From the NCBI GenBank assembly GCA_029582155.1, contig CM055897.1:9777501-9841500 (forward strand): DNA of 64,000 bases. The letters run 5' to 3'. This document shows, piece by piece, positions 11,386-60,642 of this stretch. The number at the start of each line of letters is the position of its first letter. Position 1 is the first letter of the stretch. The position numbers and the translations under genes are program-made. This DNA comes from Panopea generosa (taxonomy: Eukaryota > Mollusca > Bivalvia > Adapedonta > Hiatellidae). The notes below the pieces were generated by a model. That model worked only from the letters and a program-made list of their open reading frames with translations, was not told the DNA's origin and made no database searches.

Positions 11386-11429
11386 ACGGGAATGAGGCTC
11401 CAAAATAGTAATCCATCAGGACGAAATTT

Positions 11430-14961: not shown

Positions 14962-15009
<48 letters not shown>

Positions 15010-18845: not shown

Positions 18846-18898
<53 letters not shown>

Positions 18899-21803: not shown

Positions 21804-21835
<32 letters not shown>

Positions 21836-25462: not shown

Positions 25463-25681
25463 GCCAAACAAGATGCACAATGACATTACATGCTAAGCAC
25501 ACCATATCAAGCCTTATTCGAAACGGAATATCAGAATAATGTAAGTATCCGCTTTACCTGCATACTGTTCAATGACGAACTTGACAAGTTATCAACAAAC
25601 TTGAAACATTTACCATTCTCAGACTTTTGTGGTCGTATTCACCAACCATTTTTGAGCATATTTTTACCCAAATTTCAACCT

Positions 25682-30554: not shown

Positions 30555-30728
30555 TGTGCCATGGGGTCACTGTTGCTTGGTTTAAATCACTTTTGATTTA
30601 CATCACTAAAAGGGGCTCACTGATGTGTGGTTTACATCACTTTTGGTTTACATCACTAGAAAGGGTTCACTGTTGCGTGGTTTACATCACTTTTGGTTTA
30701 CGTCACTGGAAGGGGCTCACTGTTGCGT
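30555..30728. repeat. 50-bp repeat, left arm of nested array
   Basis: Three to four diverged units of about 50 bp containing 'gtggtttacatcacttttgg' and 'tttacatcactagaagggg' then 'ctcactgttgc'. They adjoin the 34-bp core, whose unit is the same sequence lacking an internal 16-bp piece. Confidence 0.85.
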
Positions 30729-32363
30729 GGTTTACGTGACAAGAAGGAACTCACTGTTGCGTGGTAAACATGACAAGAAGAAACTAACTGTTGCTTGGTT
30801 AACATGGCAAGAAGGAACTCACTGTTGCGTGGTTTACATGATAAGAAGGAACGCACTGTTGCGTGGTTTACATGACAAGAAGAAACTCACTGTTGCGTGG
30901 TTTACATGACAAGAAGGAACTCAATGTTGCGCGGTTTACATGACAAGAAGGAACTCACTGTTGCGTGGTTTACATGACAAGAAGAAACTAACTGTTGCTT
31001 GGTTAACATGGCAAGAAGGAACTCACTGTTGCGTGGTTGACATGATAAGAAGGAACGCACTGTTGCGTGGTTTACATGACAAGAAGAAACTCACTGTTGC
31101 GTGGTTTACATGACAAGAAGGAACTCAATGTTGCGCGGTTTACATGACAAGAAGGAACTCACTGTTGCGTGGTTTACATGACAAGAAGGAACTCACTGTT
31201 GCGTGGTTTACATGGCAAGAAGGAACTCACTGTTGCGTGGTTTACATGACAAGAAGGAACTCACTGTTGCGTGGTTTACATGACAAGAAAGAACGCACTG
31301 TTGCGTGGTTAACATGACAAGAAGGAACTAACTGTTGCGTGGTTAACATGACAAGAAGGAACTAACTGTTGCGTGGTTAACATGACAAGAAGGAACTAAC
31401 TGTTGCGTGGTTAACATGGCAAGAAGGAACGCACTGTTGCGTGGTAAACATGATAAGAAGAAACTCACTGTTGCGTGGTTAACATGGCAAGAAGGAACTC
31501 ACTGTTGCGTGGTTTACATGACAAGAAGGAACGCACTGTTGCGTGGTTTACATGACAAGAAGGAACTCACTGTTGCGTGGTTTACATGACAAGAAGGAAC
31601 TCACTGTTGCGTGGTTTACATGACAAGAAGGAACTCACTGTTGCGTGGTTTACATGACAAGAAGGAACTCACTGTTGCGTGGTTTACATGACAAGAAGGA
31701 ACTCACTGTTGAGTGGTTTACATGACAAGAAGGAAATCACTATTGCGTGGTTTACATGACAAGAAGGAACGCACTGTTGAGTGGTTAACATGGCAAGAAG
31801 GAACTAACTGTTGAGTAGTTAACATGACAAGAAGGAACTAACTGTTGCGTGGTTAACATGACAAGAAGGAACTGACTGTTGCATGGTTAACATGACAAGA
31901 AAGAACTAACTGTTGCGTGGTTAACATGGCAAGAAGGAACTAACTGTTGCGTGGTTTACATGACAAGAAGAAGCTCACTGTTGCGTGGTTAACATAACAT
32001 GAAGGAACGCACTGTTGCGTGGTTAACATTGCAAGAAGGAACGCACTGTTGCGTGGTTTACATAACAAGAAGGAACGCACTGTTGCGTGGTTAACATGGC
32101 AAGAAGAAACTAACTGTTGCGTGGTTAACATGACAAGAAGGAACTAACTGTTGCGTGGTTAATATGACAAGAAGGAGCTAACTGTTGCGTGGTTAACATG
32201 GCAAGAAGGAACGCACTGTTGCGTGGTTTACATGACAAGAAGGAATTCACTGTTGCGTGGTTAACATGGCAAGAAGGAACTAACTGTTGCGTGGTTAATA
32301 TGACAAGAAGGAACCCACTGTTGCGTGGTTTACATGACAAGAAGGAACTCACTGTTGCGTGGT
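30729..32363. repeat. 34-bp minisatellite core, about 48 units
   Basis: Uniform direct repeats: 'gtggtttacatgacaagaag' then 'gaactcactgttgc'. Common variants are ttta/ttaa in 'ggtttacat', 'ctcact' against 'ctaact' or 'cgcact', and 'atgac' against 'atggc'. Open frames on both strands coding for Arg/His/Leu-rich repeats result from absent stops and are not genes. Confidence 0.95.
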
Positions 32364-33240
32364 TTGCATCATTTGAAGTGGCGCAATATTGCGTGGTTTA
32401 CATTACTTTTGGTTTACATCACTATAAGGGGCTAGCTGTTGCATGGTTTATATAATTTTTGGTTTATATCACTAAAAGGGGCTCACTGATCTGTGGTTTA
32501 CATCTCATTTAGTTTACATCACTAGAAGGGGCTCACTGTTGCTTGGTTTACGTCACTTTTGGTTTACATCACTAGAAAGGGCTAGCTGTTGCATAGTTTA
32601 TATCATTTTTGGTTTATATCATTAGAAGGGGCTCACTGATCTTAGGTTAACATCACATTAAGTTAACATCACTAAAAGGGGCTCACTGTTGCTTAGTTTA
32701 TATCACTTTTGATTTACATCAGCAGAAGGGGCTCTCTGATGTGTGGTTTACATCACTTTTGGTTTACACCACTTGAAGAGTTTCACTTTTGCGTGGTTAA
32801 CATCATTTGAAGTGGCTTAATATTGCGTGGTTTACATCACTTTTGATTTATATCACTAGTATGGGCTCACCGTTGTGTGATTTACATCACTTTTTGTTTA
32901 TATCACTAGAAAGGCTCACTGTCGCGTAGTTTACATCATTTGAAATGGCTCAATATTGCGTGGTTTACATCACTTTTTGTTTACATCACTAAAAGTGGCT
33001 CACTGGTGCGTGGTTTACATCACTATTGATTTACATCACTAGAATGGATTCACCATAGCGTAACTTATATCACATTTGGCTTACATCTCTAGAACACTTT
33101 TGCGTGGTTTACATCATTAGAAGGGGCTCACTCTTGTCTTGTGTGGTTTACATAATTTGAAGTGGCTCAATATACGTGGTTTACATCATCTTTGGTTTAC
33201 ATCATTAAAAGGGGCTCATTGCTGCGTGGTTTGCATCAGT
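32364..33240. repeat. 50-bp repeat, right arm of nested array
   Basis: Diverged 50-bp units with the double 'ggtttacatcac' motif, such as 'tggtttacatcacttttggt' and 'tcactagaaaggg'. Indels are frequent and identity to the left arm is clear. The right arm is longer (about 17 units) and more diverged than the core. Confidence 0.9.
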
Positions 33241-33938: not shown

Positions 33939-34280
33939 GATCAATAGAACAGGATTACCAATTTGTTTCTAATGGGTCATTTTGTTAAATGTTAAGGTAT
34001 TACATTTTACCAATACTATGTGTGCGGAACCGAAGACGCCCGGCACCTTACTAACGATGCAATTTATTATTACTGCATATCGGAATCGTCTCTTCATAAC
34101 AAATAAAACATCCCCACACACATGGAATTTTCTCCGTAAGACAAATATAGGTAAAGTGTTTCTTTCTTCTTGTTTTACAAAGAAAAAAACTATGACAACA
34201 CAGATTTATTGAAACATACATGTCCTTCCAGAGAATACGTGGTTGCAATAATTTAACGTCAGAAAACGAACAAGAAAAGA
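33939..34280. other. Spacer, no gene seen
   Basis: No coding exon or RNA gene recognised; the short open frames on both strands overlap and show no domain. Confidence 0.5.
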
Positions 34281-36842: not shown

Positions 36843-38080
36843 GACATCCTTATCCTGTATATGATAACATTGCTTCGGACATTATATGCACTTTACAAAC
36901 ATACATCCTTATCTTGTATATGATAACATGGCTCCGGACATTATATGCAATTTACAAACGAACATCCTTATCCTGTATATGATAACATTGCTCCGGACAT
37001 TATATGCACTTTACAAACATACATCCTTATCCTGTTTATGATAACATGGCTCCGGACATTATATGCACTTTATAAACATACATCCTTATCCTGTATATGA
37101 TAACATTGCTTCGGACATTATATGCACTTTACAAACATACATCCTTATCTTGTTTATGATAACATTGCTTCGGACATTATATGCACTTTACAAACATGCA
37201 TCCTTATCCTGTATATGATAACATGGCTCCGGACATTATATGCACTTTACAAACATGCATCCTTATCCTGTATATAATAACATGGCTCCGGACATTATAT
37301 GCACTTTACAAACATGCATCCTTATCCTGTATATGATAACATGTCTCCGAACATTATATGCACTTTACAAACATGCATCCTTATCCTGTATATGATAACA
37401 TGGCTCCGGACAGTATATGCGTTTTACAAACATACATCCTTATCCTGTATATGAAAACACGGCTCCGGACATTATATGCACTTTACAAACATACCTCCTT
37501 ATCCTGTATATGATAACATTGCTCCGGACATTATATGCACTTTACAAACATACATCCTTATCCTGTATATGATAACATGGCTCCGGACATTATATGCACT
37601 TTACAAACATGCATCCTTATCCTGTATATAATAACATGGCTCCGGACATTATATGCACTTTACAAACATGCATCCTTATCCTGTATATGATAACATGTCT
37701 CCGAACATTATATGCACTTTACAAACATGCAACCTTATCCTGTATATGATAACATGGCTCCGGACAGTATATGCACTTTACAAACAAACATCCATATCCT
37801 GTATGTGATAACAAGGCTCCGGACATTATATGCACTTTACAAACATACCTCCTTATCCTGTATATGATAACATTGCTCCGGACATTATATGCACTTTACA
37901 AACATACATCCTTATCCTGTATATGATAACATGGCTCCGGACATTATATGCACTTTACAAACATGCATCCTTATCCTGTATATAATAACATGGCTCCAGA
38001 CATTATATGCACTTTACAAACATGCATCCTTATCCTGTATATGATAACATGTCTCCGAACATTATATGCACTTTACAAAC
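36843..38080. repeat. 59-bp minisatellite, about 21 units
   Basis: Direct repeats: 'catccttatcctgtatatga', 'taacatggctccggacatta' and 'tatgcactttacaaacatg'. Marked variants such as 'atgtctccga' recur at 37341, 37695 and 38049, exactly 354 bp (six units) apart. The right half is therefore a higher-order array. Confidence 0.97.
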
Positions 38081-39234
38081 ATTTCAAAATATACAAGAAA
38101 AACTTGACGCAAAGCATCGATTTGCCGCAAAAAATCTCTCAAAAAGCATCTGTTGAAAAGTAATGTTTGTTTCGCTTCTATCAATCCATTGCAATCTCAA
38201 CAGGAACAAGGCTGTAGATCTGCTCTTTTCTATCCTCACTATTATACCTGTTAAGTTCAACAACAAACATGTATTCCATCTTTCACCAGTTCTCAAATGT
38301 TTCGTTTCAGTTATTTAAGAACACTCGTACAGGCATTAAATAAAGATAAACAAACGTTTATAATATTAGAGACGGACGATGTTCACAAAAGGTGTTCAGG
38401 AATCCTTGCCAAAAGTTGTTCTAGTTTAGCCTTGCTTTTCTTGCCATTCCAACATTTTAAGCAAGACAAAACACTATCGATTCTTTTCTTTCCCCCATGT
38501 GCAACGTCATTCGAGTATCACATGTATATTTGCAGTCTCTTAGTTGATTAAGAAAGGGGTGCAAACGTTTATGTCGTTTTTTCTTTGAAAATCCCCCTCA
38601 ATAAATGTTATGTGAGCAAGACAGGTGGTAAATTCTTTCTCTAATCGATACATGCGCCATATGCACTAATATACTATTATGAACGAGCATTATAAACTAT
38701 TCATTTTTCTTTTTTGAACTAGTTTACTTTACTCATTGCTATAATAACATATAACTGTGCTTTTATTGTGTATCGCCCACGAATTCTGGAAACGGGTGAA
38801 GTGGAACGAGAGTCTCGCGAGATTAGAGTTTACATATATCATATTTTGTTCTTTTCTTCTGTTAATACGTTGTTTTGTGGCGTGTAAAAAAATTAAGCTG
38901 ACACGATAGGAAATGAAAATTGCATGTGTATGTTCCATAATAAAGTCTCGAATTTCTGTTCTTTGTAAGAAAAGACTGAAGAAATTTAACAGAACAAAAC
39001 AGGTAATTACGAACGCCCACATAATTGAAAACTGAATTTTCGTTGTGTAATCATGATTTTAATGTAACATATTAAAAGTTGAAATCATGATGCAGATCAA
39101 AAGAAAAAAGAAGTTCAGCCAAAAGCATTTCATCTAACGTGCATGGTGTAAAACACAAATCTGTTTAGGTGAAAAGTGTATAAATTTTGCTTGTGATTTG
39201 CCGAGGATCATTTGATTAATAACTCTTTACCGTT
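38081..39234. other. Intergenic, no gene seen
   Basis: No exon or RNA gene recognised. The open frames lack start context and domain features. Confidence 0.5.
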
Positions 39235-42549: not shown

Positions 42550-42571
42550 GGCATATTTATACTTATAAACG

Positions 42572-42577
42572 TTTATT
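42572..42577 (-). terminator. Candidate NPAS4 poly(A) signal
   Basis: AATAAA on the minus strand, about 165 bases past the last SRE-like hairpin. Such hexamers are frequent in AT-rich DNA, so the choice rests on position only. Confidence 0.35.
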
Positions 42578-42742
42578 AGACACTTTAATACTTCAGTGTT
42601 TCTATATGTGTCTAATTAATTAACATCTAATCAACTGCCAGCAACAGATGACTCCGCGAAAACACAATGGGAGGAACGGAGAGACGACGTTATGGATATC
42701 AATTAAATTGCGTGTAAAACGAGAAAATGTCGGTCCACAGAA

Positions 42743-42759
42743 ATTTCGTCCAGCGAAAT
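42743..42759 (-). promoter_or_regulatory. SRE-like hairpin 12 (loop CUGGA)
   Basis: RNA sense: AUUUCG-CUGGA-CGAAAU, a perfect six-pair stem closing a five-base CNGGN loop. The stem sequence differs from the UCCG/CGGA stems at both sides, which preserves pairing. Confidence 0.7.
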
Positions 42760-42965
42760 AAATACTCTTTGTGGCGGGTCATCTTCAAAACGAGCACAAC
42801 TAGGGCAGTTTTTACACGCATTTTAATGTGTAAACGCTATCTCTGACTTGTAAGCATTCACCAAAGCCTAAATTATTGTGCACGTTGAAGAAGTAAGAAA
42901 AAAACAAAACAACACAAGTGCTTAGTAGTAGTCAATGTTAATCATGTCTGTTTATTTCTTCAAAT

Positions 42966-42980
42966 ACCCGACCAGCGAAC
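42966..42980 (-). promoter_or_regulatory. SRE-like hairpin 11 (loop CUGGU)
   Basis: RNA sense: GUUCG-CUGGU-CGGGU. Two Watson-Crick pairs next to the loop, then three G-U wobbles. The loop fits CNGGN. Confidence 0.6.
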
Positions 42981-43195
42981 TGTTCGAAGATAACTATCAC
43001 AAACAGAGTAACACGTATGCTTCTGTGACTGGCATACCACCTGTGGCAAAAGTAGATTGCCAATGGTTGGGTTAGTACTCAGACTTCTACAAAAGCGACT
43101 TAGTTTATCACAATATTCAAAGTTAAGTAACAAACATAAATAAATCATCAACTCGTCTCAGTGAACCGACACAATGATGTTCTTTCTACAAAAAA

Positions 43196-43210
43196 ATCCG
43201 ACTATCGAAT
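43196..43210 (-). promoter_or_regulatory. SRE-like hairpin 10 (degenerate loop AUAGU)
   Basis: RNA sense: AUUCG-AUAGU-CGGAU. The five-pair stem is intact (one wobble), but the loop lacks the CNGG signature. It looks like a family member that has lost the Smaug-binding loop. Confidence 0.5.
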
Positions 43211-43301
43211 ACTTTGAAAACAGAGACAACATTTCATCGTGAACACTTTGATGTTACTTTTTGTGTATTCACAAGTCGGCAAATCGTTAAATTTCTACAG
43301 A

Positions 43302-43318
43302 AGTTCGACCAGCGAACT
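43302..43318 (-). promoter_or_regulatory. SRE-like hairpin 9 (loop CUGGU)
   Basis: RNA sense: AGUUCG-CUGGU-CGAACU, a perfect six-pair stem. Compared with UCCG/CGGA copies both stem sides are changed (UUCG/CGAA) and pairing is kept. Confidence 0.75.
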
Positions 43319-43441
43319 ATCTGAACATGAAATTTTAAACAATGTGTCGCCAAAAAAACGCTGTAAAATATTAAATACCTTTCTATGCTGTCTAACATTT
43401 GGACATTCACATGTATGCTCTGCACACAGATGAACCTCTTT

Positions 43442-43464
43442 AATAGTCCCACTAGCGAACTATT
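43442..43464 (-). promoter_or_regulatory. SRE-like hairpin 8 (loop CUAGU, degenerate)
   Basis: RNA sense: AAUAGUUC-GCUAGUG-GGACUAUU. This is the longest stem of the set, eight pairs with one wobble. The loop has CUAG where the others have CNGG, and the innermost pair is a G-G mismatch. Confidence 0.5.
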
Positions 43465-43797
43465 TGAGTATAGAATTCTTGAAAGAGCATTTACAAAATA
43501 TATGTTTATTTTTAAAGGCAGCATTAGAAAAAAAGCTGTTCCAAAAACCTCCAGATAACCGTTTTATTTTAAATAAAAGTACCGTTTATGCTAAATTTTA
43601 ACGAGACAAATCATATTTTGGAACCGCTATTCCAAAATATTACAAACATAAAGTGTGATAAAATTGCTTTTCGTGTAGTTCTAATTGTTTTGTTAATCCA
43701 TATTAAATATTTTTGATATTATTATATTATTTCATACTTTCTTCAACGTTTTTATGTCTAATGATTATAATAGGCACAACCATTTTCTGCAACAGGG

Positions 43798-43810
43798 TCC
43801 GTCCAGCGGA
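43798..43810 (-). promoter_or_regulatory. SRE-like hairpin 7 (loop CUGGA)
   Basis: RNA sense: UCCG-CUGGA-CGGA, a four-pair stem with a CNGGN loop. Confidence 0.7.
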
Positions 43811-43956
43811 TACATTATTTTCAAGCAAATAAACTTTGTAGAAAACTATAGCGCCAATACAAATCATCATTAGACGATACCATGTCAGATTGAAAATAGA
43901 CTTTCACATAACTGACATAACGCAGTACAGTAAATGTGAAAATGCTTTGAAGCAGT

Positions 43957-43969
43957 TCCGTCCTGCGGA
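43957..43969 (-). promoter_or_regulatory. SRE-like hairpin 6 (loop CAGGA)
   Basis: RNA sense: UCCG-CAGGA-CGGA. The second loop base is A instead of U, the one loop position where the Smaug consensus allows any base. Confidence 0.7.
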
Positions 43970-44139
43970 TGTTTTACTGCTTTGGCAAATTCCTATCTGA
44001 CCTCTAAACCTTAATGAAATAATAACGTACATCTCTAAGCTATACTGGCAATGCTCCCGATTATGCACAGCATTGCCTATCGCACATGAAAACGTTTCCA
44101 AACATACCTTGGTAAACGTTTGAAAATCCACAAACATTT

Positions 44140-44152
44140 TCCGACCAGCGGA
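44140..44152 (-). promoter_or_regulatory. SRE-like hairpin 5 (loop CUGGU)
   Basis: RNA sense: UCCG-CUGGU-CGGA, a four-pair stem with a CNGGN loop. Confidence 0.7.
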
Positions 44153-44426
44153 CTATATAACTGAATATATGACTTTGTGGATTTTAAAACCTTAAAGTAT
44201 GTGACATAACTTCGAACGGGTTTTTCTGTTTGATTAATTCAACAGAAATATACTAATTTCTTGTAAGAATTGGATTTCCAATTATCATCGTCTCTCCTTC
44301 GTCGAAACAAAAATACACATTTTCAATACAATATGAATAAACACATTGTAAAGACAAAATACAGAGAAAAAACATTTACAAAGTACATTGAAGCATAGTT
44401 AATACTCAGAAGAAACGCGTCGCATG

Positions 44427-44439
44427 TCCGACCGGCGGA
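44427..44439 (-). promoter_or_regulatory. SRE-like hairpin 4 (loop CCGGU)
   Basis: RNA sense: UCCG-CCGGU-CGGA. The second loop base is C, again within the permitted N position of CNGGN. Confidence 0.7.
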
Positions 44440-44697
44440 TACACATTGCGTAATTGAAAGAGTCAAACAAATTAGCCGATCCATTGAGCCATTTACACTA
44501 CCTGTCTCGAAGTGGCAAAACATTTCAAACCTGAGCCAGCAGTTATGAAATGTATTCGACAAAGACAAAAACACAAATCCCTCATTTCTCCTTCGTTACA
44601 AAAATGCTGCCAAACAATAAAATGTGATAAAATGGTGTACAAAATTCGATGAAAAAGATAAATGTTTACTAATACTACCTTAAAACAAAATGAAATG

Positions 44698-44710
44698 GGC
44701 AACCAGCGCC
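44698..44710 (-). promoter_or_regulatory. SRE-like hairpin 3 (loop CUGGU)
   Basis: RNA sense: GGCG-CUGGU-UGCC. Different stem sequence (three GC pairs and one G-U closing pair) with the same loop. Confidence 0.65.
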
Positions 44711-44808
44711 AAAACATGCTTGAATAGTTATACTTCGAAGGTAGTAAAACAGTTATTAAATTCTCGACTACATAATATCGGTAAAAATATTACAAGGCAA
44801 AAATACAT

Positions 44809-44816
44809 TATGTACA
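44809..44816 (-). promoter_or_regulatory. Pumilio response element candidate
   Basis: UGUACAUA on the NPAS4 sense strand matches the Pumilio consensus UGUANAUA. I found one exact match in the inferred 3' UTR, so chance is a real alternative. Confidence 0.4.
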
Positions 44817-45220
44817 ATTTTTAACCGATTGAGGTTTTTAGCATATTTAAGAACAAATACTCTAAAAATCTTAATGACTAAAATTCACAAATTAAAGACA
44901 TTATGAAAACAACACTGCAATCTTGACCCCTTTGAGTTATGAGGTTCAGTTGATAAACATAAGCATAAAATGTCACATCGTGTACTGATATAAAACAAAC
45001 ACTTCAAGGCACTCATTAAGAAATCAGATAATCTACAAAAGATTATCCATTTAACAAAAAATGCTCTCAAACTATCTTCCTTTGCAATCACGTTATTCGT
45101 TAAAGCTAAAATTTAAATGTTTATTTACAAATGTCGGAATAAAGTTCATCACTTCCGCAGCTGCAATTTGCCATTTCAGGCATACATATAAATATATACG
45201 AATCATAATTGAAGTCAATA

Positions 45221-45235
45221 ATACGTCCTGCGTAT
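45221..45235 (-). promoter_or_regulatory. SRE-like hairpin 2 (loop CAGGA)
   Basis: RNA sense: AUACG-CAGGA-CGUAU, a perfect five-pair stem. The stem sequence differs from all the others while the CNGGN loop is kept. Confidence 0.7.
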
Positions 45236-45454
45236 AAATGTAAGAGTCGAGGCCAAGCATGATCCAGCACCGAGTCCACCGACAAAAAAGCACCTTGTCA
45301 GGTGTAGCACATTTCCCGCCGTAAGTCTAAATAATGATCATGGTAGGTTGAAGTCGGAAGTAAAAAATAGAAAAAAAACTACGATCTTTCTCCGCCCGCA
45401 GAAAAAGACCAAAGCCGGGTACCATCATCAGCGTGACGCTTTACTTGACTAATC

Positions 45455-45465
45455 CCGACCAGCGG
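45455..45465 (-). promoter_or_regulatory. SRE-like hairpin 1 (loop CUGGU)
   Basis: RNA sense: CCG-CUGGU-CGG. Only three pairs in the stem, so this is the weakest of the members with an intact loop. It lies about 100 bases after the stop codon. Confidence 0.5.
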
Positions 45466-45560
45466 TTGTCAACAGCAACACTCTGTGATGGTCACGAATG
45501 ATTAATCATGGCAATATGCCATACATCTAGATGATTGTAAGTAACACTTACATAAAAAGC

Positions 45561-45592
45561 CTACTGGGTGTTTTGGTTGGAGTCAAGTGCAC
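45561..45592 (-). CDS. NPAS4: NPAS4 terminal coding exon
   Basis: The acceptor is 'ttttccag' on the minus strand. It completes the split Gly codon and adds ALDSNQNTQ before TAG at 45561-45563. Phase agrees with the donor at 45877. Reading through that donor instead would add an unrelated AT-rich tail to the protein. Confidence 0.8.
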
Positions 45593-48500
45593 CTGGAAAA
45601 TACAAAAAAAGAAACACACACTAAGTACACTACTTTAAAGTGAAAAATCATAAGTATACATAAAATAAACAATAACTAGTGTAACTTATAGATAAATATT
45701 CTAAAAAATCAATAAATATTACTTGAATTTTTTATATATGTAAGCTATTTCTTCGCCCAGTAATAAAGAGTTAAGTTATGATAAAATTTTAGATACGTCC
45801 ATCAACATATATTGACATTTTACGTTCATTTGAATATGTATGCTGTGTTTGTATATAATAACAACTTTCAACTTACCACATGGTGTCCAAGACTGCTGTA
45901 GAAGGAGTTGTTTGAGATGGTACATGTCATCATTCTTCACTTCCGGTTTAATGTCGCATGGTAACGCATCTAATACAGGAAGCGCCATGTCTAGTGATAG
46001 ACTGATTGGTTCCAACAACCAGTTATCAGGGTCCAGAATGTCGTCTCTTCCATCGTAACCTGGTGATGATGAGCATGGACTCATTTCATGGTAGTCAGAA
46101 GCAGATCTCTTCTGATTTTCTACGGACAAAGGAGATTCAAACGATGATGAATACGATTCGGAAACATTGTCACAATACGATTTAGGTGATGCCACCGGAG
46201 ATGTGCTAGACTCTGTTGAAGAAAAAGATGAAGTAAGCGATTGGTCTGATCCAGCAGTTCCAACCATACCAAGTAATCTTTCCAAGTCTGAGCAATCTTC
46301 GTACGTCAATTCCTGTTTGATCATAATGTTAGACGAAGGCGGTAACGGCAGGCATGATGGTGGTGGTGATGGTGACGATGATGTTATAAGTGTCGGCGAT
46401 TCTGATTGTGTGCGATTGTAAATATGGCGGGTTGATGGTCGCGTCTCATAAGGTTCTGGCGAGAGAGGCTCTTCTTTTATGTTTATATATTTCTCATGCA
46501 GAGAAAATGGAGCGAGATCGTCGAAGAATGAATCTACAAATGTTGCATCAATAACTGGCAGATTTTTCTTCTTGTTTGTTTCTTTTGATGGGGATGTTAC
46601 TTGACATTGCTTCATCTCATTCAATTTGTCCATGACATATGTGGTAAGATGTTTAATCTCATGTACGTCTTGCTGAACTTCGACACCTGAATGCAATGGC
46701 TTTGGGGAGGTTGCAGGTGAAGGCTCTGGCGTAAGATAACAGTCAGGAATTAAAACCTCTGGTACCACTTGCTCTAGCGTGCATGTCGGAGCCAGTTTCT
46801 GAACTACATCTGGCTTTCCAACAGAAGCTATGGCGTCGACAAGTAAGTCATTCTTATTGCGGATGGCGTGTAAGGGATCGTTTCTAGCTGACTGATACAC
46901 CATAGGTATTGTACTCCCAGTAAAGGCAGATACATCTCCGTTGTTTAAACCATGGTTGAGACCAGAGGAGTTCCTGAACACGTTTACATTCATGACGTAT
47001 TGAGTTTCTGGCGCGCTAGGGTAGTCGCTACAACCGCCATCGCTTGGGGAAAGCCTCGGCAATTTTGTTGGTTTGCAAGATGATATGAAATTCTCTTGCA
47101 ATTTTCTCTTGAGTGCTTTAATTGTACTTGTGTGACCTTGGAGTCTCTGTCCAGAGATATCTAATCCCGTGTCAAGGATACCATATTGGTTCGGTTGGTG
47201 AGGAAACATCGTCTGGCCCTGCTGTGGATTACCAAACTGGAATCGCTGTTGATCAGCAAAATAGTCATGTTGTTGCCGCATAAACATTTGGGCATGGGGA
47301 CGTCCCATCATTTCTGGATCCATTGTTTGGTGCATTTGTGGAAGTTGATGACCACCGAAAAAGATGTCGGGGGCCCTTGCTGCGTAGAGGGCAAAGAGCT
47401 GACCTTGGATTTTAAACTGTTTTGCCTCCTCTTCACTGCAAATATATAAATGGCAAACGATTTACAAATACATAAATGACAAACAATTTACAAATATATA
47501 AATAACAAACGCGTTTTGCAATGTTGCTTCCACTTTTTTCACTAAAGCAAACTGGTGTATTTTAACAATAACAAATACAATGCTATTTATTTATATAAAA
47601 TTCAAATATTTTTTCAACCCTCAACCGAAGCATTACTAAATTGATTATAATGTCATTACAGGGCTTCGGTACTACGCGCTTTATTCAGAATTTGTGAAAT
47701 AATACAATACAACTTTCTTACCTGACAACTTGATTGATGCATACGATGACCGGATCATCGCTGTTTGTTAGCAGAGCCTGTCTCACGTGCATAACGATGT
47801 TCACCCAGATAACCTCGTTGCTGTTTGTGATCATTCGTACAGTCATCATACAGCCCATCTCGTGGCGAGATTTTATCACTGTTAATGAAAATTGTAGTAT
47901 AATTTACAGCCGTCTAAATATATCCTACTTTTCATACGATAAACATTAACTGTTATTTCGCAGTCAACCACGCCTAGATTTATAGAAGTATCTTATATTT
48001 ATATCGTTGCATTATCTTTTATCTTCAACTACATTTTAAATATAACAGTTAGTTAAATAAAAGAAATACTGTAGAATGCTGGACTGGCATTGGTTCTATA
48101 AAACATATATATTTACTTACGTTGTATATGTTTGGCTCTGGCTTCTGTAAGGTCCTCAGGATGAAGCATTGAGTACCAGGAGCGGTTGTGTAGTTGACCG
48201 GTGTTCAGACCAATATGATGCTCACCTCTAATGTAAATGAAAACAGTTGTTTTTATTTATAACCTGTTAATAACATTCATATGCTGAATATTACACACAC
48301 AATTGTATTAAACAATAACGTATGAAGGCCTGTTAAATTTAACTCATGTAACGTTCCTGTACAGTATCATTGCGTATTTGTTTGTCATGTGTTGTAAGGT
48401 ATGCTATGCATTTTAAGTATACAATTTCTGTCCTGTTCTGTTATAAAAACATTAAATGTCATAGTCTTGAATAGAAACTAATCATCACTCAAATTTAGGC

Positions 48501-51500
48501 GTGCTCTATTATAAAAAAAAACATTTTGCTACTATATTTAGAATTTCGCCTTACGTTTCAGCAATTTCTATGAAGGACATGTCCAACTTGTGCACGCTCT
48601 TAAAGATCATTGTATTGTTCTGTATGAGACTCTCCTTCACGTCTGGTGTGATTAAAGGTGAACACAGTGCCATAAACACGTGCTGTTCCGCACCATTACC
48701 TTCCTTGGCTGTGACAGGTACGAAATGACCTTTCACGTGCATCACCTGGAATGATAAAGATAAATACTGAAGGTAAAGTATTATTTTAAATAAGGCGGCA
48801 TTGTTTGTATCAACAACACACCTCACAGTCCTATTTCTATACGAAATAGTTTTATAACAAACAGATTATATATGAAAATAAACAATAAAACATGTTAACC
48901 TCATGTTCTTTGTTTCGCTAGAGTTTATATGCTATCTGCCAATGAATCATTATAGTACTTTATAAATTCCGGGCTGTTTTAACTGTTATTATGCTGTTTG
49001 GCATCAACTAGATGTTCTGTTTGCATTGTAATCGTTACTTGATAATGTTTATAGGTAGACAGAGCATCAAGCACGGGAGAAGGAGGAGAAGGAGTGCTGC
49101 TTATGAAAGTTGTAGGTTAATTAGTTATGACGTCATAATACAGGTGCGATAGTAGACAGCCATGTTGTACCTTGCCACATTTTGGGAAACGCAGCTAATT
49201 GAACCACAAGCCTACAATAAGGTAGTTAAGATAAGTGTAATTATACAGCACTAAGTGGTTCTGTCTCGGGCGAACATTAAAAAAGAATAATTAAATTAAC
49301 ATTTTCTTTTATGTATATATTTTTGAAAAAAGAAAACTTCTCATATATAAGCTAGTTCAACAGAGTTATTTCTATCATATCCTATCTTATGATTATATGT
49401 GAAACACATAACTTATGATAATATGTGAAATATATGACTTATGATGATATGTGAAACAAATAATGTGTGATGATATGTGAAACACAGAACTTATAATGAT
49501 ATGTGACATTTATACCTTATGATGATATGTGAAACACATAACATGTGATGATATGTGAAACACATAATTTATGATGATATGTGAAACACATAACGTGTGA
49601 TGATATGTGAAACACATAACTTATAATGATATGTGACACTTATAACTTATGATTATATGTGAAACACATAACGTGTGATGTTATGTGAAACACATTAATT
49701 ATGATGATATGTGAAACACATAACGTGTGATGATTGGTGAAACACATAACTTATGATGATATGTGAAACACATAACGTGTGATGATTGGTGAAACACATA
49801 ACTTATGATGATATGTGAAACACATAACGTGGGAATACAGTAAATACAGTCATGTTGCTATAGGTATAACTGTGGTAATTATGCAAATAATTGACAACTT
49901 TCTTTCTTTTTTTTTGTTGTTTACTATTAGTTTTAAATGTATGGTTGAGATGAAAGAAAATTGCCGTCATAAAATATATGTATTTTAATTGATATATAAA
50001 GCAGGACAACTCATTGGTCGAATGACTAATATTACGTTCTTCCGGCTTAAAAAAAGAAAATACAATTTATTAGTCTATCCTTGTGGCCTAACACTCCGTC
50101 ACCAGTTGATGAATGGGCTGTTGAGAAAGAGCATATAAAAACTGTCAAGGTATGCATATAACACTGGTCCTCGGGCGAGTCAGCTGTCATTTGTACGACT
50201 ATAATCTACAATCTCATATTCTATATGAATACGGCTTGTCTGTATGCCAAGGTAGCTATTGTTTTAAGAATTATTCACTTGGTATGACAGGGCATGTAAT
50301 ACTTTAATATCTCCTCTATATTGAAACGTTTTATACATGGTTAAGCCTATATAATTGTTTGTGATAAAACTAAGCATTATTTATTGTTGTTTTATAGTAA
50401 TGGTCGCGTACAACAAGCAATCTATTGTTTGCAGTTTAAACAGATTGAACATTACTTAGTTGTTAGGAATGTCCACTAATTTAGTAAAGAACCTGTATAC
50501 CTCATTTAAATTACACATTTTATACAAAATATTTCAGTATCATCTAGTTTATACTAATTTATTTTAGCTCGATTGCGAGGAAAACTCAGATCTTATGTGA
50601 ACCGCTCCGAGTCCACTTCCTTGAGTGTTGTTTATGAGAGGCATCGGTTCGAGACAGGGATCAATTCTCAACCTCTGGTGTGAGCGTCCAACACTCTATC
50701 CACTACACAATCGGTCCGATTTCCGTTTCATCTGACAAATCGTGTTTCAATTTTGTAAACGTTTATTTAAAAAGTGCTTTAGAGAAAAGACTTGTAAATA
50801 AGATTCTATTTTCATCAGGTCATCCTTCAGAAAATACTATAAAATCCTATAAATAATATGCAAATGGATATGTATTACGTATATCGTTTATTTATATCAT
50901 TGGTAAGATAAAAAAATTAATGCATAACAGTTTTTTTAAACAAGTTACGTTAACCAGATGCCCCAGTAATATTTCACGTTGACATTGATATATAGGTTAT
51001 GTATTAATTACCGAGCGAGAAGTCTATGCAAGTGTTTTACGGTCCACAGGTTGTCAGTATCCGACACTTTTGATAAATGACGAAACAAAGTTGAGTACGT
51101 CAGAAAAATCTTGGGAAACACTTGTTTTAAGTGCTTGAAAGAATCTATCAAGTCTGCGATGCAGATTTATGTTTGTGTCTAGGGTAGAATTGAGAATAAC
51201 ATGTGTTTCTAATAACTCTCATTGCTTCGTTACTTTGACAATTTAATTTGCATTCAGGCAAACCTTTGAGTACTTACTACAAGTGGTTAAGGTATGTTTA
51301 GGTTCAGTGACAAGATCGTACGTTAATATCTTAATTCCGTTGCTCTGTTGGACTCAAATTTTAAGGAAGGCTTTGACATTATGTTCTCTGTGCATTTTTA
51401 TAATAAAACTTTCCAGTATGGTAGTACATTGTATTATTTGTTTTAAATGTTTTAGAACATAATTATAAACAATAGCTAGCAACATTTATTCACCAAATCC

Positions 51501-54500
51501 CGACCTTATTTACTAACTAGAACGCCAACTCAAATAAAGCCTACATTGTGTGTAGTACAAACATAAAGTCCTGAAGCACTCACTTAAACTGCGGAAGCTG
51601 ACAATATTGTGGTTTGACGCAATATCCGGGTTGGGAAAATGAAAGTTAAATAAGGGAAAAGTTAATCGCAGCATAATATAGTTGAAATGTTTAATTTAGA
51701 TGAAAAACTGACTATTAAATATTATAGGTCCCAATTTCTGTTTTAACAATTTATACGTCGGTTGCGTGTATCAGTTTTCCTCTTTAATCTCATACTGGAC
51801 TATGTTGCTTAAATAGGAATATTGATATACAAAATAACAATTTATATACAGAGACCCGTAACATCACCATAGTTACGCTGCAATTAACTCTATCTAATAC
51901 TAATTGGTTTTATGCAAAGCGATTTGCCAGCCCTTCATGCTGCCAACCCGTGTTTTACACTGACATATTATATAGTACAATAGGCGCTGTACAATATATC
52001 GGAGTAAATTATTCTCTACATTTTTTTGTGAAATTGGTTGGACGTACTATAATATTTCAGTCAATGTGTTTAAATGTACAGGGTGTTACACACCATCGCA
52101 TATGAAAATGGATCCGCATCCAATATATTTAAATGATTTGATATATTCTTTTTACAATAACAATTATTAAATACTATTAGTATTCATTTATTACTACAAT
52201 GACATCAACATAAACAGAAAAGACCAATGGAAAAGTATACTACGGTCTGTGCTCATAGAGCATTGTATGAAGATAATATAAAAATGTAGCCAAGTGTTAG
52301 GCGTCAAAACAGCAATTTAATGTTATACATTAATGCATTTAAAAAAAAGTTTTATGGAGACTTCAACTAAAATATAACCGACGCCCCCTTTTTAAAACTT
52401 GCTATCCATTTCTGTTTCTCACAGTTTATCGCTATCCGAAGTCTAATTGTTAAGCTTTCAAAAGTTTTATTGTCCGATGAATGCAGATAATTCTAAGGCG
52501 AATAACTTCTTCCTTCGCATGCTATTTTAAATTATGTAACATATATTATATGACTTTCGTTTTTATCTTAAGATATAATCTTAGATAGGTAATAAAAGCA
52601 GGCTTTCCAAATTATTCTGCCACTAATTTTGATATGAAAAAATACTTGATGTCGTTAATATGGGTCGTGATGCATGGGAACTAACGTTTGTTTCATAAAC
52701 GCGTGTATAGCGCAGAAACAAGTGAGTATGCCAAACATATGGTTTGTATTAAACAAATACGCGAAAGTTATAAACGTTTTTCTCATAGGAATTCTGAAAA
52801 GTCGACAGCTTTTAAAATTCGAATGCTATAATAACTTTTAATTTGTAAAGTTTGTATGGACGTAGTCTTTGGGTTCATTTTCTTCTTTTTCTAATAATAG
52901 CAAAGGGATTGTTTAAAAATGATACAATGGAGGAAACTGCTCATTTCATGTTAATTAGAGGAACGCTTCGAACTAAACAGGTCATTAGATACATAAGCGT
53001 TCTCAGTGCTTTTATTCGTTTAACTATTTCAAATAGATTGTGCGATTTCTTCTGTTTCTGATATCACAATTAAGCGTGTATATGTAGCCTGGGACAGTAT
53101 TAAATATACCTCTATGACAAAATCTCCCTTAAAAGCCCACACTATGATTAACATGTAAAGTATATTTAAATGATATCTTAAATCAAGGTAAAAATATCCG
53201 CATTGATGTAACAATTAAACCATTAAGTAGGCGATAAACCAGATCTCACCTTCACATCTCCAAATCCGCCCTGTCTCTTTAGTGTTCTAGACATATTCAT
53301 TCGGCAAAAGAAAGATGTTCTCCGTCCTTGCTGACCGTCGGCCGCCGCGACCCCATGTAATAGCTGCGCCTGCACAGTACCATGGTCTCGCTTGTCGACG
53401 ATATCAAATAGACTATCACCTTGAGTTTTCATATCAACCATTGAATGCCCTAGGTATTCTGTGACATTCTCGGAAATATAGACTAACTTTCCATCCCGGG
53501 TAGTGACTAGAATGAACCCAGTCAGGGACTGAAATTAAAATGAATTAGTGTACTATAAATGCAACATTTTAATCGTGGACAAAACTTATTAGATTTTATG
53601 TTTTAGTAATGTGAATATGTCTAATTTATATTTCAAATACGACTTAAACCAATGCCAGGATTTATATATATTGACGAGTTGTGTTGTGCACTACTATGAT
53701 GACAGTCTATGTTCTGCTTAATGTATTTCCTATTCAAACTACACGTGAAATCAGATCAAATGAGACCAAATTATTCCAATACATGTATGTTGGTTTTCTA
53801 ATAATGTATATTGTTTGAACTGGTATGATATTTTATATCTATAGCAAAAAAAACAGGGTATACAAGTATGAGTAACCATAGCAATGCGTGATCATATCAC
53901 CTATAAATAAATATAGATGGTGCTTAGATTTTTGCAAATTAAAACTTAAATATGATAGAAAAGAGGCTCAAATATTGTTTCTTATGTTGAATACGTTTTG
54001 TCTAAAGAACTATTCATGTGTTAATGGTCACCCTAATAAAAAAAAAATATCGCCCGATGTATCGTTGTACATACACATAAATGCTATAGACATTATAAGG
54101 AGCAATTGAATAAACACACATGTATTCATTAAGTGGTGTATGCATTTTCTTGCAGTAACACTTAACTCGACACCCAGTTATACTATCACTTATCTCGCCT
54201 TCGTCGATTTAAATCGCAAAGTGTTTGCAATAACCCGCAACTTCCATCATGCACTTAGCGCGTGATACAAGTGGGCTTGTATTCCACCGACAACTACAGT
54301 TTAACGTGTTTTATGCAACTCAATCACATATTGCTGTTGAAAACTTTACCTTAGCTCCCAGAACTAGTAATATGTGACATAAGTGTCCGTACGTTCGTCA
54401 ATTGCAGCAATCTCGCTTTAATTTTTACATGTACATTTTGGCGAAATGGGGAGGGCTATAACTTAAGTTTATAAAATTTGTTTCATTTTATTCATTAACT

Positions 54501-57500: not shown

Positions 57501-58580
57501 ATTGAAGAACAACTTACCGAAGTGAAATCACACGGGACTTCAATTGAACAGCGGTTTGTTGGGAGCACTGAAACGATAAAAAAAATATTTCTTGTATTTG
57601 AACGTTAATGTCAAGTTGCTTTTACAAAATCTAACTATTGGACCCCCATGAATGAATATATAGGCTACTAATAGCAGATTATGCCTAATTATAATAGTTG
57701 TACTTCATTTCAACCTAGTGTTTACTGTAAGAATTCAGTTCAGCCTCTGTAAACTACACGACAATAAACAAGTTCTTCAGTTTAACGGCTGTATTACGTG
57801 ATATGGTATTGATGTTATACGCTATGCTGACAGGAAACCTGCTATATGCGATTACATAAGATGACAAGAAGATACTACAGGACACTTGAATGTTTATCAT
57901 TGTATCCAACCTAGCCTGAGAGCTTAGATAGCTGCACCACAGCTAACCACTTTGTAACTTCCTTTTCAACATCCTTCTATCACTTTCAAGTCCTATTATT
58001 GTTTTCTGATGAAACACAATGACAAACTTCCTAATACTGTACTTTTTTTCCTTGAGTGTGTGTTAACACTTGTGCGTTAAATAACATGTCAGGCTCCGAT
58101 AGATGAGTTAACATAGCATCGACAATGTCGAGTTGCATAAAAGGTAATATATAAAACAATATATGCAAAACTAATTAATTTAAATAAACTTCCAGTACCC
58201 ATTTGGCCTTTAATCAAACCTGTTTGTAACAGTATATAAACCGGGCACATAAAAGTAATTGTAAAGCAGGACAACTTTGTTGAAACATGTTATTCGAATA
58301 TGTGCACATTCATTTAAAATTTAAAGAAAAAACGAACCAATGTTTACAGGAAGTCAAACGTTTCTGTATTTATAAAGGACAAACATATTTCTAAACAAAA
58401 CACGTCTACTTACTTTTCTGAAGTATGTTGCATTTTCGGATGTACACACAACTAAGGGACATGATTTGTAATTGTGATAGCCTCTGCCGGGCGGACTCTT
58501 GTAAAGGGAGCAGATCTCGCATCGTTGCTATTTCGCCATTTATTTGATCTCTTCGCTGCTTTGAGGCCCCTCTGTTCGAC
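45561..58580 (-). CDS. NPAS4: NPAS4 / dysfusion homologue, bHLH-PAS factor (first exon missing)
   Basis: bHLH-PAS transcription factor, expected to act in the nucleus as a heterodimer with ARNT/Tango; vertebrate NPAS4 is an activity-induced neuronal factor. Eight exons join in phase: 58414-58580, 57518-57567, 53250-53528, 48555-48745, 48121-48227, 47722-47878, 45877-47435, 45561-45592. All introns are GT-AG. Numbering from the first visible residue gives 847 residues: basic/HLH 2-56 ([12 protein letters not shown]), PAS-A about 74-170 ([20 protein letters not shown]), PAS-B about 215-320 ([13 protein letters not shown]), then a long Ser/Pro-rich acidic tail. The bHLH, the LGHSMVD segment and the RSWYS-LHPEDL segment are typical of NPAS4, not of HIF, SIM or AHR. 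Mammalian NPAS4 is about 800 residues, so the length fits. The start codon lies in an upstream exon I could not establish. Confidence 0.93.
45877..47435 (-). CDS. NPAS4: NPAS4 large exon: linker and transactivation region
   Basis: 1559-bp exon between 'atttgcag' and 'gtaagttg'. It encodes residues 318-838, beginning [20 protein letters not shown] after PAS-B. It contains a basic patch (IKALKRKLQ), three SUMO consensus sites (K638, K691, K814), two LxxLL motifs (702-706, 825-829), xLAP motifs near 529-534 and 622-627, Ser-rich stretches, and an acidic hydrophobic segment ([20 protein letters not shown]). Low complexity and acidity fit a transactivation domain; homology to vertebrate NPAS4 here is weak, as expected. 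Confidence 0.92.
47722..47878 (-). CDS. NPAS4: NPAS4 exon: PAS-B C-terminal half
   Basis: 157-bp exon between 'attaacag' and 'gtaagaaag'. It encodes [20 protein letters not shown] and [15 protein letters not shown], the beta-sheet part of PAS-B with the conserved V-I-W-V segment, and ends CINQVV plus a split Ser codon. It is in phase with both neighbours. Confidence 0.92.
48121..48227 (-). CDS. NPAS4: NPAS4 exon: PAS-B N-terminal part
   Basis: 107-bp exon encoding [20 protein letters not shown] and [15 protein letters not shown]. The [13 protein letters not shown] stretch is the strongest single indicator of NPAS4. The acceptor was placed after 'acattag', not two bases later, because the alternative creates a stop codon at the junction. 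Confidence 0.93.
48555..48745 (-). CDS. NPAS4: NPAS4 exon: inter-PAS region and start of PAS-B
   Basis: 191-bp exon between 'cattccag' and 'gtaagg'. It encodes [20 protein letters not shown] through FMALCSPLI (end of the PAS-A associated strand) to [16 protein letters not shown], which opens PAS-B. Confidence 0.92.
49128..49135. promoter_or_regulatory. Full CRE palindrome (intron)
   Basis: Exact TGACGTCA, the high-affinity CREB/ATF site. It is one of three in the window, all within NPAS4 or its immediate upstream flank. Function is inferred only. Confidence 0.5.
49380..49832. repeat. 26-bp minisatellite in NPAS4 intron
   Basis: About 17 units of 26 bp close to 'tgatgatatgtgaaacacat' plus 'aactta' or 'aacgtg'. 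The two endings partly alternate, giving a 52-bp dimer. Confidence 0.93.
50546..50722 (-). mobile_element. tRNA-derived SINE, family B, copy 2
   Basis: On the minus strand it reads 'tgtgtagtggatagagtgtt' (A box), 'gagaattgatccctg' (B-box region), 'cgatgcctctcataaacaac', 'gactcggagcggttcacat', 'gcaatcgagctaaaataaat' and 'tagtataaa'. This is collinear with the copy at 33.75 kb. Relative to NPAS4 it is inserted in the sense orientation within an intron. Confidence 0.85.
53250..53528 (-). CDS. NPAS4: NPAS4 exon: PAS-A
   Basis: 279-bp, phase 0-0 exon between 'aatttcag' and 'gtgaga'. It encodes [60 protein letters not shown], and a linker with [16 protein letters not shown]. The GKLVYISE-(9)-LGHSMVD pattern followed by GDSLFDIVD is PAS-A of the NPAS4 type. 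Confidence 0.95.
53529..57517 (-). other. NPAS4: NPAS4 intron, 4.0 kb
   Basis: No further exon recognised. It contains a TGACGTCA palindrome at 55310-55317 and a weak tRNA-like segment on the minus strand near 56760-56815 with 'ggagtttaaatcccagccc'. The rest is AT-rich. Confidence 0.8.
55310..55317. promoter_or_regulatory. Full CRE palindrome (intron)
   Basis: Exact TGACGTCA within the intron before the PAS-A exon. It is a candidate intronic enhancer element; only the sequence match is observed. Confidence 0.5.
57518..57567 (-). CDS. NPAS4: NPAS4 small linker exon
   Basis: 50-bp exon between 'cgtttcag' and 'gtaagttg'. It completes a split Met codon and encodes [17 protein letters not shown]'s first part through FTS, the linker between HLH and PAS-A. 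Of the three frames only this phase joins both neighbours without a stop. Confidence 0.8.
57568..58413 (-). other. NPAS4: NPAS4 intron, 0.85 kb
   Basis: Intron between bHLH exon and small linker exon. No repeats or extra exons recognised. Confidence 0.8.
58414..58580 (-). CDS. NPAS4: NPAS4 exon: bHLH
   Basis: 167-bp exon between 'cttccag' and 'gtaagt'. It encodes [20 protein letters not shown] (basic region and helix 1), [20 protein letters not shown] and [15 protein letters not shown] (loop and helix 2). The basic region GASK-RRDQIN is characteristic of NPAS4. The exon starts with the last base of a split codon, so an upstream coding exon is required; the preceding in-frame sequence has no ATG before a stop. 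Confidence 0.95.
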
Positions 58581-58734
58581 CTGGAAGAACCATTTGTAAG
58601 AGTGTTAATAATGAAGAACAGTTTTATTTATTATAACATGATAACCAGTTTACTCTAGTAGGGGTCTGTCAGCAACATATTCGGTTTGTAACACCAATAC
58701 ATATTGGTTTGTACCATCAGCATTTAAGGTGTAT

Positions 58735-60118: not shown

Positions 60119-60642
60119 AAGGTGTATTTCTTCCCAGGGATTGGTTGATTAGTATAAACATAATTCATACGTTTCGAACAAACACATTATTGCCGCTTGC
60201 CAAGGCACTTTTCAAAGTTTCTAGTCATATTTTAGTACACTAGTACCATTGCGTATGTCTGGCAAGTAGGTGAACAGCCTAGTTGCTGCCTACAATGTTG
60301 TTTTTTTTTTTACAGATTTGCGTAATACCACAGGAGAAATATTTTAAAAAGTACACACGTTAGGTTTGAGCAGTTAGAATATGACATCAGCAGATGTCTA
60401 TGTCTAACAGCGAAGGTTACTGTAGCACACACTGCCAGTAAAGATAACAGCTAAGCATGAGAGAGAGCGCGCGGACCACATGGGCTTGTATAACGTTACT
60501 TAATGACCTCACGCAATATATACCATGGGTGCTAAAATGTTGTGAACATAAATCGAACACGTATCTTAAAACTCCTGCATAATTGTGACGGATTTCCATA
60601 GGCACCAATAGGAATATTAATGAGAAGTTAGTTGATAGACAT

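What the first reader, a model, noticed from the sequence alone, without database searches (positions are those of the whole stretch)
42743..45465. Array of about ten Smaug-recognition-element hairpins in the inferred NPAS4 3' UTR
Seen: on the NPAS4 sense strand, ten hairpins within 2.7 kb share the form stem-CNGGN-stem. Starts: 42743, 42966, 43302, 43798, 43957, 44140, 44427, 44698, 45221, 45455. Loops are CUGGU (5), CUGGA (2), CAGGA (2) and CCGGU (1). Bases 1, 3 and 4 never change, while base 2 is U, A or C. Known: Smaug/Vts1 SAM domains bind hairpins with CNGG loops (Smaug recognition elements, as in Drosophila nanos), recruiting CCR4-NOT deadenylase and translational repressors. Mammalian Smaug1 forms synaptic granules that respond to stimulation. 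Inference: the mRNA of an activity-induced transcription factor may be under dense Smaug control, for rapid decay or local silencing. The pattern has meaning only in this orientation, since the complementary loop is NCCNG.
Basis: partly seen in the sequence, partly recalled or inferred. Interest (0 to 1): 0.9.

Follow-up and report, generated by a model that had tools for sequence, protein, structure and literature searches.

The report
Smaug hairpin array in NPAS4 UTR
The predicted tail of a gene-regulator's messenger RNA carries about a dozen small RNA hairpins of the shape read by the repressor protein Smaug, far more than chance, suggesting tight control of that message.

Summary
All ten hairpins exist at the stated places with the stated loops. 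Nine have at least 4 uninterrupted base pairs, against a mean of 0.38 in dinucleotide shuffles, 0 of 1000 reaching nine. The core CGCNGGWCG occurs 9 times in the 64-kb window, all here and on one strand, against 0.15 expected. A folding-based Smaug-element score is 7.04 against 0.11 in shuffles; nine altered-loop controls score 0.05 or less and the other strand 0.00. Folding adds two CNGG hairpins, making twelve. They match published Smaug preferences: G before the loop in 12 of 12, U at loop base 2 in 8 of 12. Two stem pairs vary between copies yet stay paired. The gene is NPAS4, its stop codon lies just upstream, and the genome encodes a Smaug SAM domain. Best reading: an SRE array through which Smaug represses or destabilises the mRNA. 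Transcription, binding and conservation in relatives are untested; several hairpins fold poorly in long windows. ZCCHC14, which reads the same loop and stabilises RNA, is a rival. Neuronal-activity control is not established.

The parts
42550..45560 (-). inferred NPAS4 3' UTR carrying the array; the 3' end is a guess from an AATAAA at 42577
   Evidence: stop codon; poly(A)-signal scan; no transcript data
45561..45592 (-). end of NPAS4 coding sequence in the last exon (first base 45592, stop TAG 45563-45561)
   Evidence: frame continues from the preceding exon through the inferred intron
45877..47461 (-). large NPAS4 coding exon (open frame; last base before the donor 45877; 5' boundary not determined)
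   Evidence: no Pfam match on its own
53223..53534 (-). open frame with the NPAS4 PAS-A exon
   Evidence: best PDB matches NPAS4, E 2.5e-21; no Pfam match at E 0.001
58406..58627 (-). open frame with the NPAS4 bHLH exon
   Evidence: Pfam PF23183 bHLH_NPAS4, E 9.1e-26
42743..42759 (-). SRE hairpin AUUUCG-CUGGA-CGAAAU, enclosed by an 18-nt inverted repeat (42702-42719 / 42810-42827)
   Evidence: probability 0.60-0.90
42966..42980 (-). SRE hairpin GUUCG-CUGGU-CGGGU
   Evidence: forming probability depends on window (0.04-0.79)
43302..43318 (-). SRE hairpin AGUUCG-CUGGU-CGAACU
   Evidence: probability 0.94-0.99
43798..43810 (-). SRE hairpin UCCG-CUGGA-CGGA
   Evidence: probability 0.29-0.93
43957..43969 (-). 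SRE hairpin UCCG-CAGGA-CGGA
   Evidence: probability 0.90-0.95
44140..44152 (-). SRE hairpin UCCG-CUGGU-CGGA, enclosed by a 20-nt inverted repeat (44115-44134 / 44174-44193)
   Evidence: probability 0.37-0.97
44427..44439 (-). SRE hairpin UCCG-CCGGU-CGGA
   Evidence: probability 0.78-0.98 in windows up to 80 nt, 0.01 in longer ones
44531..44542 (-). extra CNGG hairpin, CUG-CUGGCU-CAG, six-base loop
   Evidence: probability 0.93, 0.79-0.95; pairs read from the sequence
44698..44710 (-). SRE hairpin GGCG-CUGGU-UGCC, G-U closing pair, weakest by prediction
   Evidence: probability 0.02 or less; enclosed by a 9-bp helix
45221..45235 (-). SRE hairpin AUACG-CAGGA-CGUAU
   Evidence: probability 0.94-0.97 at 40 nt, 0.08-0.09 at 170 nt, 0.29
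45387..45406 (-). extra CNGG hairpin, 8-bp stem with CGGG tetraloop
   Evidence: probability 0.96, 0.92-0.97; pairs read from the sequence
45455..45465 (-). SRE hairpin CCG-CUGGU-CGG, only 3 bp
   Evidence: probability 0.25-0.38
43196..43210 (-). hairpin of the same stem type with non-SRE loop AUAGU
   Evidence: matches the hairpin model weakly, 9.5 bits, E 7.4
43442..43464 (-). hairpin of the same stem type with non-SRE loop CUAGU
   Evidence: (family D1)

Best explanation
The 3' UTR of this animal's NPAS4 mRNA carries an array of about twelve Smaug recognition elements. The SAM domain of the genome's Smaug reads each CNGG loop presented on a short C-G/G-C-clamped stem. Many bound Smaug molecules would then recruit the CCR4-NOT deadenylase and translational repressors, so the mRNA is short-lived or held silent until Smaug is removed. 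Shown here: the hairpins, their excess over chance, their strand and loop specificity, compensatory stem changes between copies, the NPAS4 coding frame ending just upstream, and a Smaug-type SAM domain in the genome. Inferred: transcription of the stretch, binding, and repression or decay.
For:: the excess over shuffles; score 7.08 for CNGG, against 0.05 or less for each of nine loops altered at one fixed base, and 0.00 on the other strand. (PMC4053848, passages): Smaug binding and repression are best predicted by CUGG loops, G immediately 5' of the loop and five-base loops. G precedes the loop in 12 of 12 listed hairpins against 3 of 11 other CNGG sites in the stretch, and loop base 2 is U in 8 of 12; 86% of cells paired against 73.3% shuffled, covariation score 0.458 against 0.184 (0 of 500 for both), and higher than every slid version; enclosing helices around eleven hairpins score higher on average than at random places in the same stretch (4 of 5000 random sets reach it); none of 124 comparison strand-stretches (62 pieces, two strands) from elsewhere in the genome scores above 1.13, against about 7. 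Smaug SAM domain split over two exons, the first closest in the PDB to fly Smaug, with the RLHKY and GAR-K residues kept; gene identity and stop codon.
Against: No transcript data. No related species could be compared. In 170-nt windows at 25 C four of twelve hairpins have forming probability below 0.1, and 44698 is 0.02 or less in every window tried. The outermost of the five stem pairs tested is formed in 4 of 10 copies, and the number of pairs with a two-sided change is reached by 25 of 500 shuffles. Taken one by one, only 2 of 11 enclosing helices are better than shuffled flanks at p 0.01. The CG pairs flanking the loop and A/U at loop base 5 are more constant than the SRE consensus demands. 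Two hairpins of the series have loops that should not bind Smaug. The G-before-loop figure is partly circular, because ten of the twelve were listed for sharing the core.
Confidence: 0.7

Rival explanations
1. The hairpins are read by a ZCCHC14-type SAM protein that brings TENT4 poly(A) polymerases, giving mixed tails that protect the mRNA. The array would then stabilise NPAS4 mRNA instead of repressing it.
For: ZCCHC14's SAM domain binds CNGGN pentaloops and recruits TENT4 (PMC11508327 passages). Ten of twelve hairpins are pentaloops.
Against: The cases in the passages are viral RNAs, with one such loop named in each. The Smaug SAM query found only the two Smaug exons, though that search is not sensitive enough to exclude ZCCHC14, which was not searched for. 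An mRNA of a fast regulator is more naturally a decay target (inference).
Confidence: 0.13
2. A different, undescribed RNA-binding protein reads the whole 9-base core CGCNGGWCG with its stem; the likeness to the Smaug element is partly coincidental.
For: Invariance reaches beyond the SRE: C6, G7 and G14 in 10 of 10, C13 in 9 of 10, A or U at loop base 5 in 10 of 10. Two same-stem hairpins have AUAGU and CUAGU loops.
Against: Variation falls where the SRE allows it (loop base 2), and the two extra hairpins share only CNGG and the preceding G, not the core. The Vts1p RNA-binding domain also contacts the stem 5' of the loop (stated in the passages).
Confidence: 0.1
3. The array is a by-product of repeat duplication (a dispersed or decayed tandem repeat) without a role in the mRNA.
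For: One family of three 38-nt copies (42954, 43291, 43434) reaches beyond the hairpin at 74% and 66% identity to the first (D1). Elsewhere in the genome a similar hairpin occurs inside a satellite.
Against: No tandem array is found in 42550-45560. Flanks beyond the arms are no more alike than random places (0.265 and 0.288 against 0.279, 95% limit 0.302; twelve copies, ungapped, one of them entered one base out of register). Stem changes are compensatory and the other strand and altered loops show nothing.
Confidence: 0.05
4. The conserved 9-mer is a DNA site for a transcription factor in a downstream enhancer rather than an RNA element.
For: The stretch has no transcript evidence, and near-palindromic motifs can be protein-binding DNA (general knowledge; no call).
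Against: All nine exact cores share one strand, arms differ between copies but stay complementary, G-U pairs included, and the enclosing helices are an RNA-like feature.
Confidence: 0.02

Closest known systems
Smaug recognition elements of Drosophila nanos (3' UTR) and Hsp83 (eight in the open reading frame)
   Same: CNGG loop on a short stem, several elements in one mRNA
   Different: About twelve elements spread over 2.7 kb of an inferred NPAS4 3' UTR, with a nearly constant CG...CG clamp; no binding data
ZCCHC14-TENT4 recruiting stem-loops of hepatitis B virus PRE and cytomegalovirus RNA2.7
   Same: CNGGN pentaloop read by a SAM domain
   Different: Viral, one such loop named in each RNA, stabilising; here a cellular mRNA with an array
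Mammalian Smaug1 silencing foci at synapses
   Same: Smaug holding mRNAs silent in neurons, released on stimulation (PMC9893680 passages)
   Different: NPAS4 has not been linked to Smaug in the library searched (0 papers with both words)

Membership tests
Smaug recognition element (SRE) | hairpin loop CNGG followed by 0-4 bases | tested here: met
   ten CNGGN loops plus CGGG and CUGGCU
Smaug recognition element (SRE) | loop closed by a stem | tested here: met
Smaug recognition element (SRE) | preferred features of bound targets: G 5' of loop, U at loop base 2, five-base loop | tested here: met
   12 of 12 and 8 of 12, ten of twelve five-base loops; preferences
Smaug recognition element (SRE) | lies in a transcribed mRNA in sense orientation | not testable with these tools
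   sense strand and position after the stop codon fit; no RNA data
Smaug recognition element (SRE) | bound by a Smaug-family SAM domain | not testable with these tools
   a Smaug SAM domain exists in the genome; binding needs an assay
Smaug recognition element (SRE) | structure kept in related species | not testable with these tools
   no relatives of this genome are held; compensatory changes between copies stand in
ZCCHC14-TENT4 recruiting stem-loop | CNGGN pentaloop | tested here: met
   ten of twelve
ZCCHC14-TENT4 recruiting stem-loop | ZCCHC14 present and bound, mixed tails on the RNA | not tested
   no ZCCHC14 query was run; the SAM_1 search lists 51 matches without names
Rfam family | match above a gathering score | tested here: not met
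   0 matches in the window

The most novel reading that the evidence does not exclude
In this lineage NPAS4 mRNA is a dedicated, high-dose Smaug target: a multivalent scaffold of about twelve SREs that drives the mRNA into Smaug granules and releases it on stimulation. Several AATAAA signals inside the stretch (45125, 43568, 43510, 42956, 42577) would let alternative polyadenylation set the number of SREs, from about three to twelve, as a dosage dial. This would link Smaug granules to an activity-type transcription factor outside vertebrates.
Probability: 0.25. Interest if true: 0.87.

Novelty: new member of a known kind. Interest (0 to 1): 0.72.

Why it matters
If true, NPAS4 or its invertebrate homologue is under dense post-transcriptional control by a conserved RNA-binding repressor, a link for which the library search found no paper. 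The array gives a ready natural substrate to ask how the number of Smaug sites sets mRNA fate, and a place to test whether Smaug granules gate transcription-factor mRNAs.

Tried and rejected
Other arrays: the cluster at C1:22739437 is a 19-bp minisatellite with poor stems, and the nine hairpins at C3:39341011 (L013) lie in a 112-bp satellite of 16.9 units. Of the other pattern loci fetched (30 of 32 and 30 of 56 places, NPAS4 included) none has more than two strong hairpins on one strand. Genome-wide the nine-base core and TTCGCNGGWCGAA are not enriched over reversed controls (6,321 vs 7,806 and 32 vs 45); TCCGCNGGWCGGA is (56 vs 15), half of it (28 of 56) with a CCGG loop. Arrays with other stems could have been missed. 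Elsewhere in the window single CNGG hairpins also score (3-kb tiles from 3000 and 51000: 0.98 and 0.92; one further model match at 34220-34238, 14 bits, E 0.47). Pfam PHAT found nothing, but its control rang nowhere. Rfam: no match. Relatives of the NPAS4 exon among viral contigs: none. PF05741 (nanos) as a positive control for SREs was asked for five times and never answered. A 1401-nt fold was not analysed further. The SRE score follows the published procedure in spirit, not in detail, and depends on where the window is placed (45221: 0.29, 0.09). The comparison stretches are not random: most were fetched because they hold one such hairpin, which biases them upwards. Paper searches seen only as listings: apart from the papers named in this report, of which I saw passages. 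One search (molluscs) listed eight papers, none of them holding the word Smaug; one search listed four with Smaug and immediate early gene, none opened. Brigidi and others 2019 (mammalian Npas4 in dendrites) was seen only as cited.
Full report
Setting. The window is G000:C4:9777501-9841500 of an unnamed 1.47-Gb genome in 39 contigs, for which no relatives are held. A gene on the minus strand encodes NPAS4: the bHLH exon matches Pfam bHLH_NPAS4 at E 9.1e-26, and the PAS-A exon has NPAS4 as its best PDB match at 2.5e-21, ahead of HIF-1alpha at 9.9e-12. The 519-residue open frame, the PAS-A frame and the frame at 48551-48865 gave no Pfam match at E 0.001, and a piece of the last gave no PDB match. 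Reading the large coding exon through an inferred intron (last exon base 45877, next exon from 45592) gives a frame ending at 45563-45561. The stretch in question therefore begins directly after the stop codon. AATAAA signals on the sense strand lie at 45125, 43568, 43510, 42956 and 42577, and two more beyond; 42577 is about 165 bases past the last hairpin.

The observation. All ten hairpins are present with the loops stated. Nine have at least four uninterrupted pairs and the tenth (45455) three. In 42550-45560, minus strand, nine CNGGN hairpins with stems of four or more stand against a shuffle mean of 0.38 and a maximum of 4, 0 of 1000 shuffles reaching nine; the other strand has one. Of all loop classes with three fixed bases out of five, CNGGN gives the most stem-supported hairpins, nine from 23 occurrences; the next class has eight from 137. 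The core CGCNGGWCG occurs nine times in 64 kb, all in this stretch and on the minus strand, against 0.15 expected.

A folding test. I sampled structures around every CNGG and asked how often it opens a hairpin loop of four to eight bases, in the manner of Chen and others 2014 (PMC4053848, passages). The sum is 7.08 for the stretch, 0.00 for its other strand and at most 0.05 for each of nine loops altered at one fixed base. Two hundred dinucleotide shuffles give a mean of 0.11, standard deviation 0.23, maximum 1.16, against 7.04. The other two are new and lack the shared core: an 8-bp stem with a CGGG tetraloop (loop C at 45398) and a CUGGCU loop (44539). The forming probability is above 0.25 for 11 of 12 at 80 nt and 37 C, but four of twelve fall below 0.1 at 170 nt and 25 C, and 44698 stays at 0.02 or less throughout.

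Fit to Smaug. Published data find CUGG loops, G just before the loop and five-base loops the best predictors of Smaug binding and repression. Here G precedes the loop in 12 of 12 and loop base 2 is U in 8 of 12 (A 2, C 1, G 1); ten of twelve loops have five bases. Among the 11 other CNGG sites in the stretch G precedes three. Loop bases 1, 3 and 4 are constant by the way the hairpins were listed, so the altered-loop controls carry that part of the argument.

Covariation and larger structure. Five stem pairs were tested on the ten copies. The closing pair is G-C in 9 and G-U in 1; the next is C-G in all ten; the third is paired in 10 of 10 with five pair types; the fourth is paired in 9 of 10 with three types; the fifth is paired in only 4 of 10. 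Overall 86% of cells pair against 73.3% shuffled, and the covariation score 0.458 exceeds all 500 shuffles (mean 0.184) and all slid versions; the count of pairs with a two-sided change (3) is reached by 25 of 500. The copies are not independent species, and three of them may share a duplication (family D1), so this is weaker than a comparison between species. Flanks beyond the arms are no more alike than random places (one of the twelve copies was entered one base out of register). Some hairpins sit inside longer helices, such as the 20-nt inverted repeat around 44140 and the 18-nt one around 42743. The best enclosing helix scores higher on average than at random places in the stretch (4 of 5000 random sets of eleven reach it), but one by one only 2 of 11 beat shuffled flanks at p 0.01 (44698 and 44140). 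Fold z-scores of the twelve pieces run from 0.06 to -2.97, so not all pieces are unusually stable; these twelve pieces include the two non-SRE hairpins and were not centred on the two extra ones.

Uniqueness in the genome. The nine-base core is not enriched genome-wide (6,321 against 7,806 for the reversed pattern). All 32 places of TTCGCNGGWCGAA and all 56 of TCCGCNGGWCGGA were listed, and 30 of each were fetched, the NPAS4 places included. Apart from NPAS4 only one fetched locus holds more than two strong hairpins on a strand, a 112-bp satellite. Of 124 comparison strand-stretches of about 3 kb (62 pieces, two strands each), the highest score is 1.13. They were chosen mostly by pattern and are not random. 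Arrays with other stems could have been missed.

The reader protein. A query for the SAMD4A SAM domain found two adjoining exons at C4:47590408-47591503 (68% and 74% identity). They read [27 protein letters not shown] and NVTKGARNKIVISIKKLQERQ. The first is closest in the PDB to fly Smaug. Of the seven RNA-contacting residues of Vts1p quoted in PMC9893680 (passages), five are kept if the numbering is set on RLHKY and GAR-K, which is my own reading.

Mechanism and rivals. The best reading is Smaug-mediated repression or decay through a multivalent array; the quoted comparison is Hsp83 with eight elements. ZCCHC14-TENT4 would read the same loop with the opposite outcome and was not tested. Control by neuronal activity is attractive because mammalian Npas4 mRNA is translated locally in dendrites (PMC7279237 passages) and Smaug1 foci dissolve on NMDA stimulation. 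Against it, the dendritic form is credited to a longer 5' UTR (PMC8295539 passages), and the invertebrate homologues studied, fly dysfusion and worm C15C8.2, are expressed in tubular organs (PMC4255624 passages). One library search for papers holding both npas4 and smaug found none.

Check of the report.

Noticed in passing
window 11424-13702, 14240-22958, 24374-25469, 30694-32369, 36844-38082, 49386-49828, 60614-61115: The window is rich in minisatellites, including an 8.7-kb array of 39/117-bp units with strong strand skew; the NPAS4 UTR stretch itself holds none.
   Followed up: no
L013 (C3:39341011): A 112-bp satellite (16.9 units in the locus) carries nine CNGG hairpins of the form CUCG-CUGGU-CGAG or near it; its folding score was not among the 15 highest of the comparison stretches.
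   Followed up: partly
genome-wide, for example L034-L063: TCCGCNGGWCGGA is over-represented against its reversed control (56 vs 15), 28 of 56 with a CCGG loop, as a dispersed repeat might be.
   Followed up: no
window 43196-43210 and 43442-43464: Two hairpins of the same stem type have loops AUAGU and CUAGU, which should not bind Smaug; they may be decayed copies or have another reader.
   Followed up: partly
G000:C11:17604791-18123369 and G000:C10:12101257-12296819: SAM-domain matches with equal or nearly equal scores repeat in two local clusters, suggesting expanded SAM gene families (sequences not seen).
   Followed up: no
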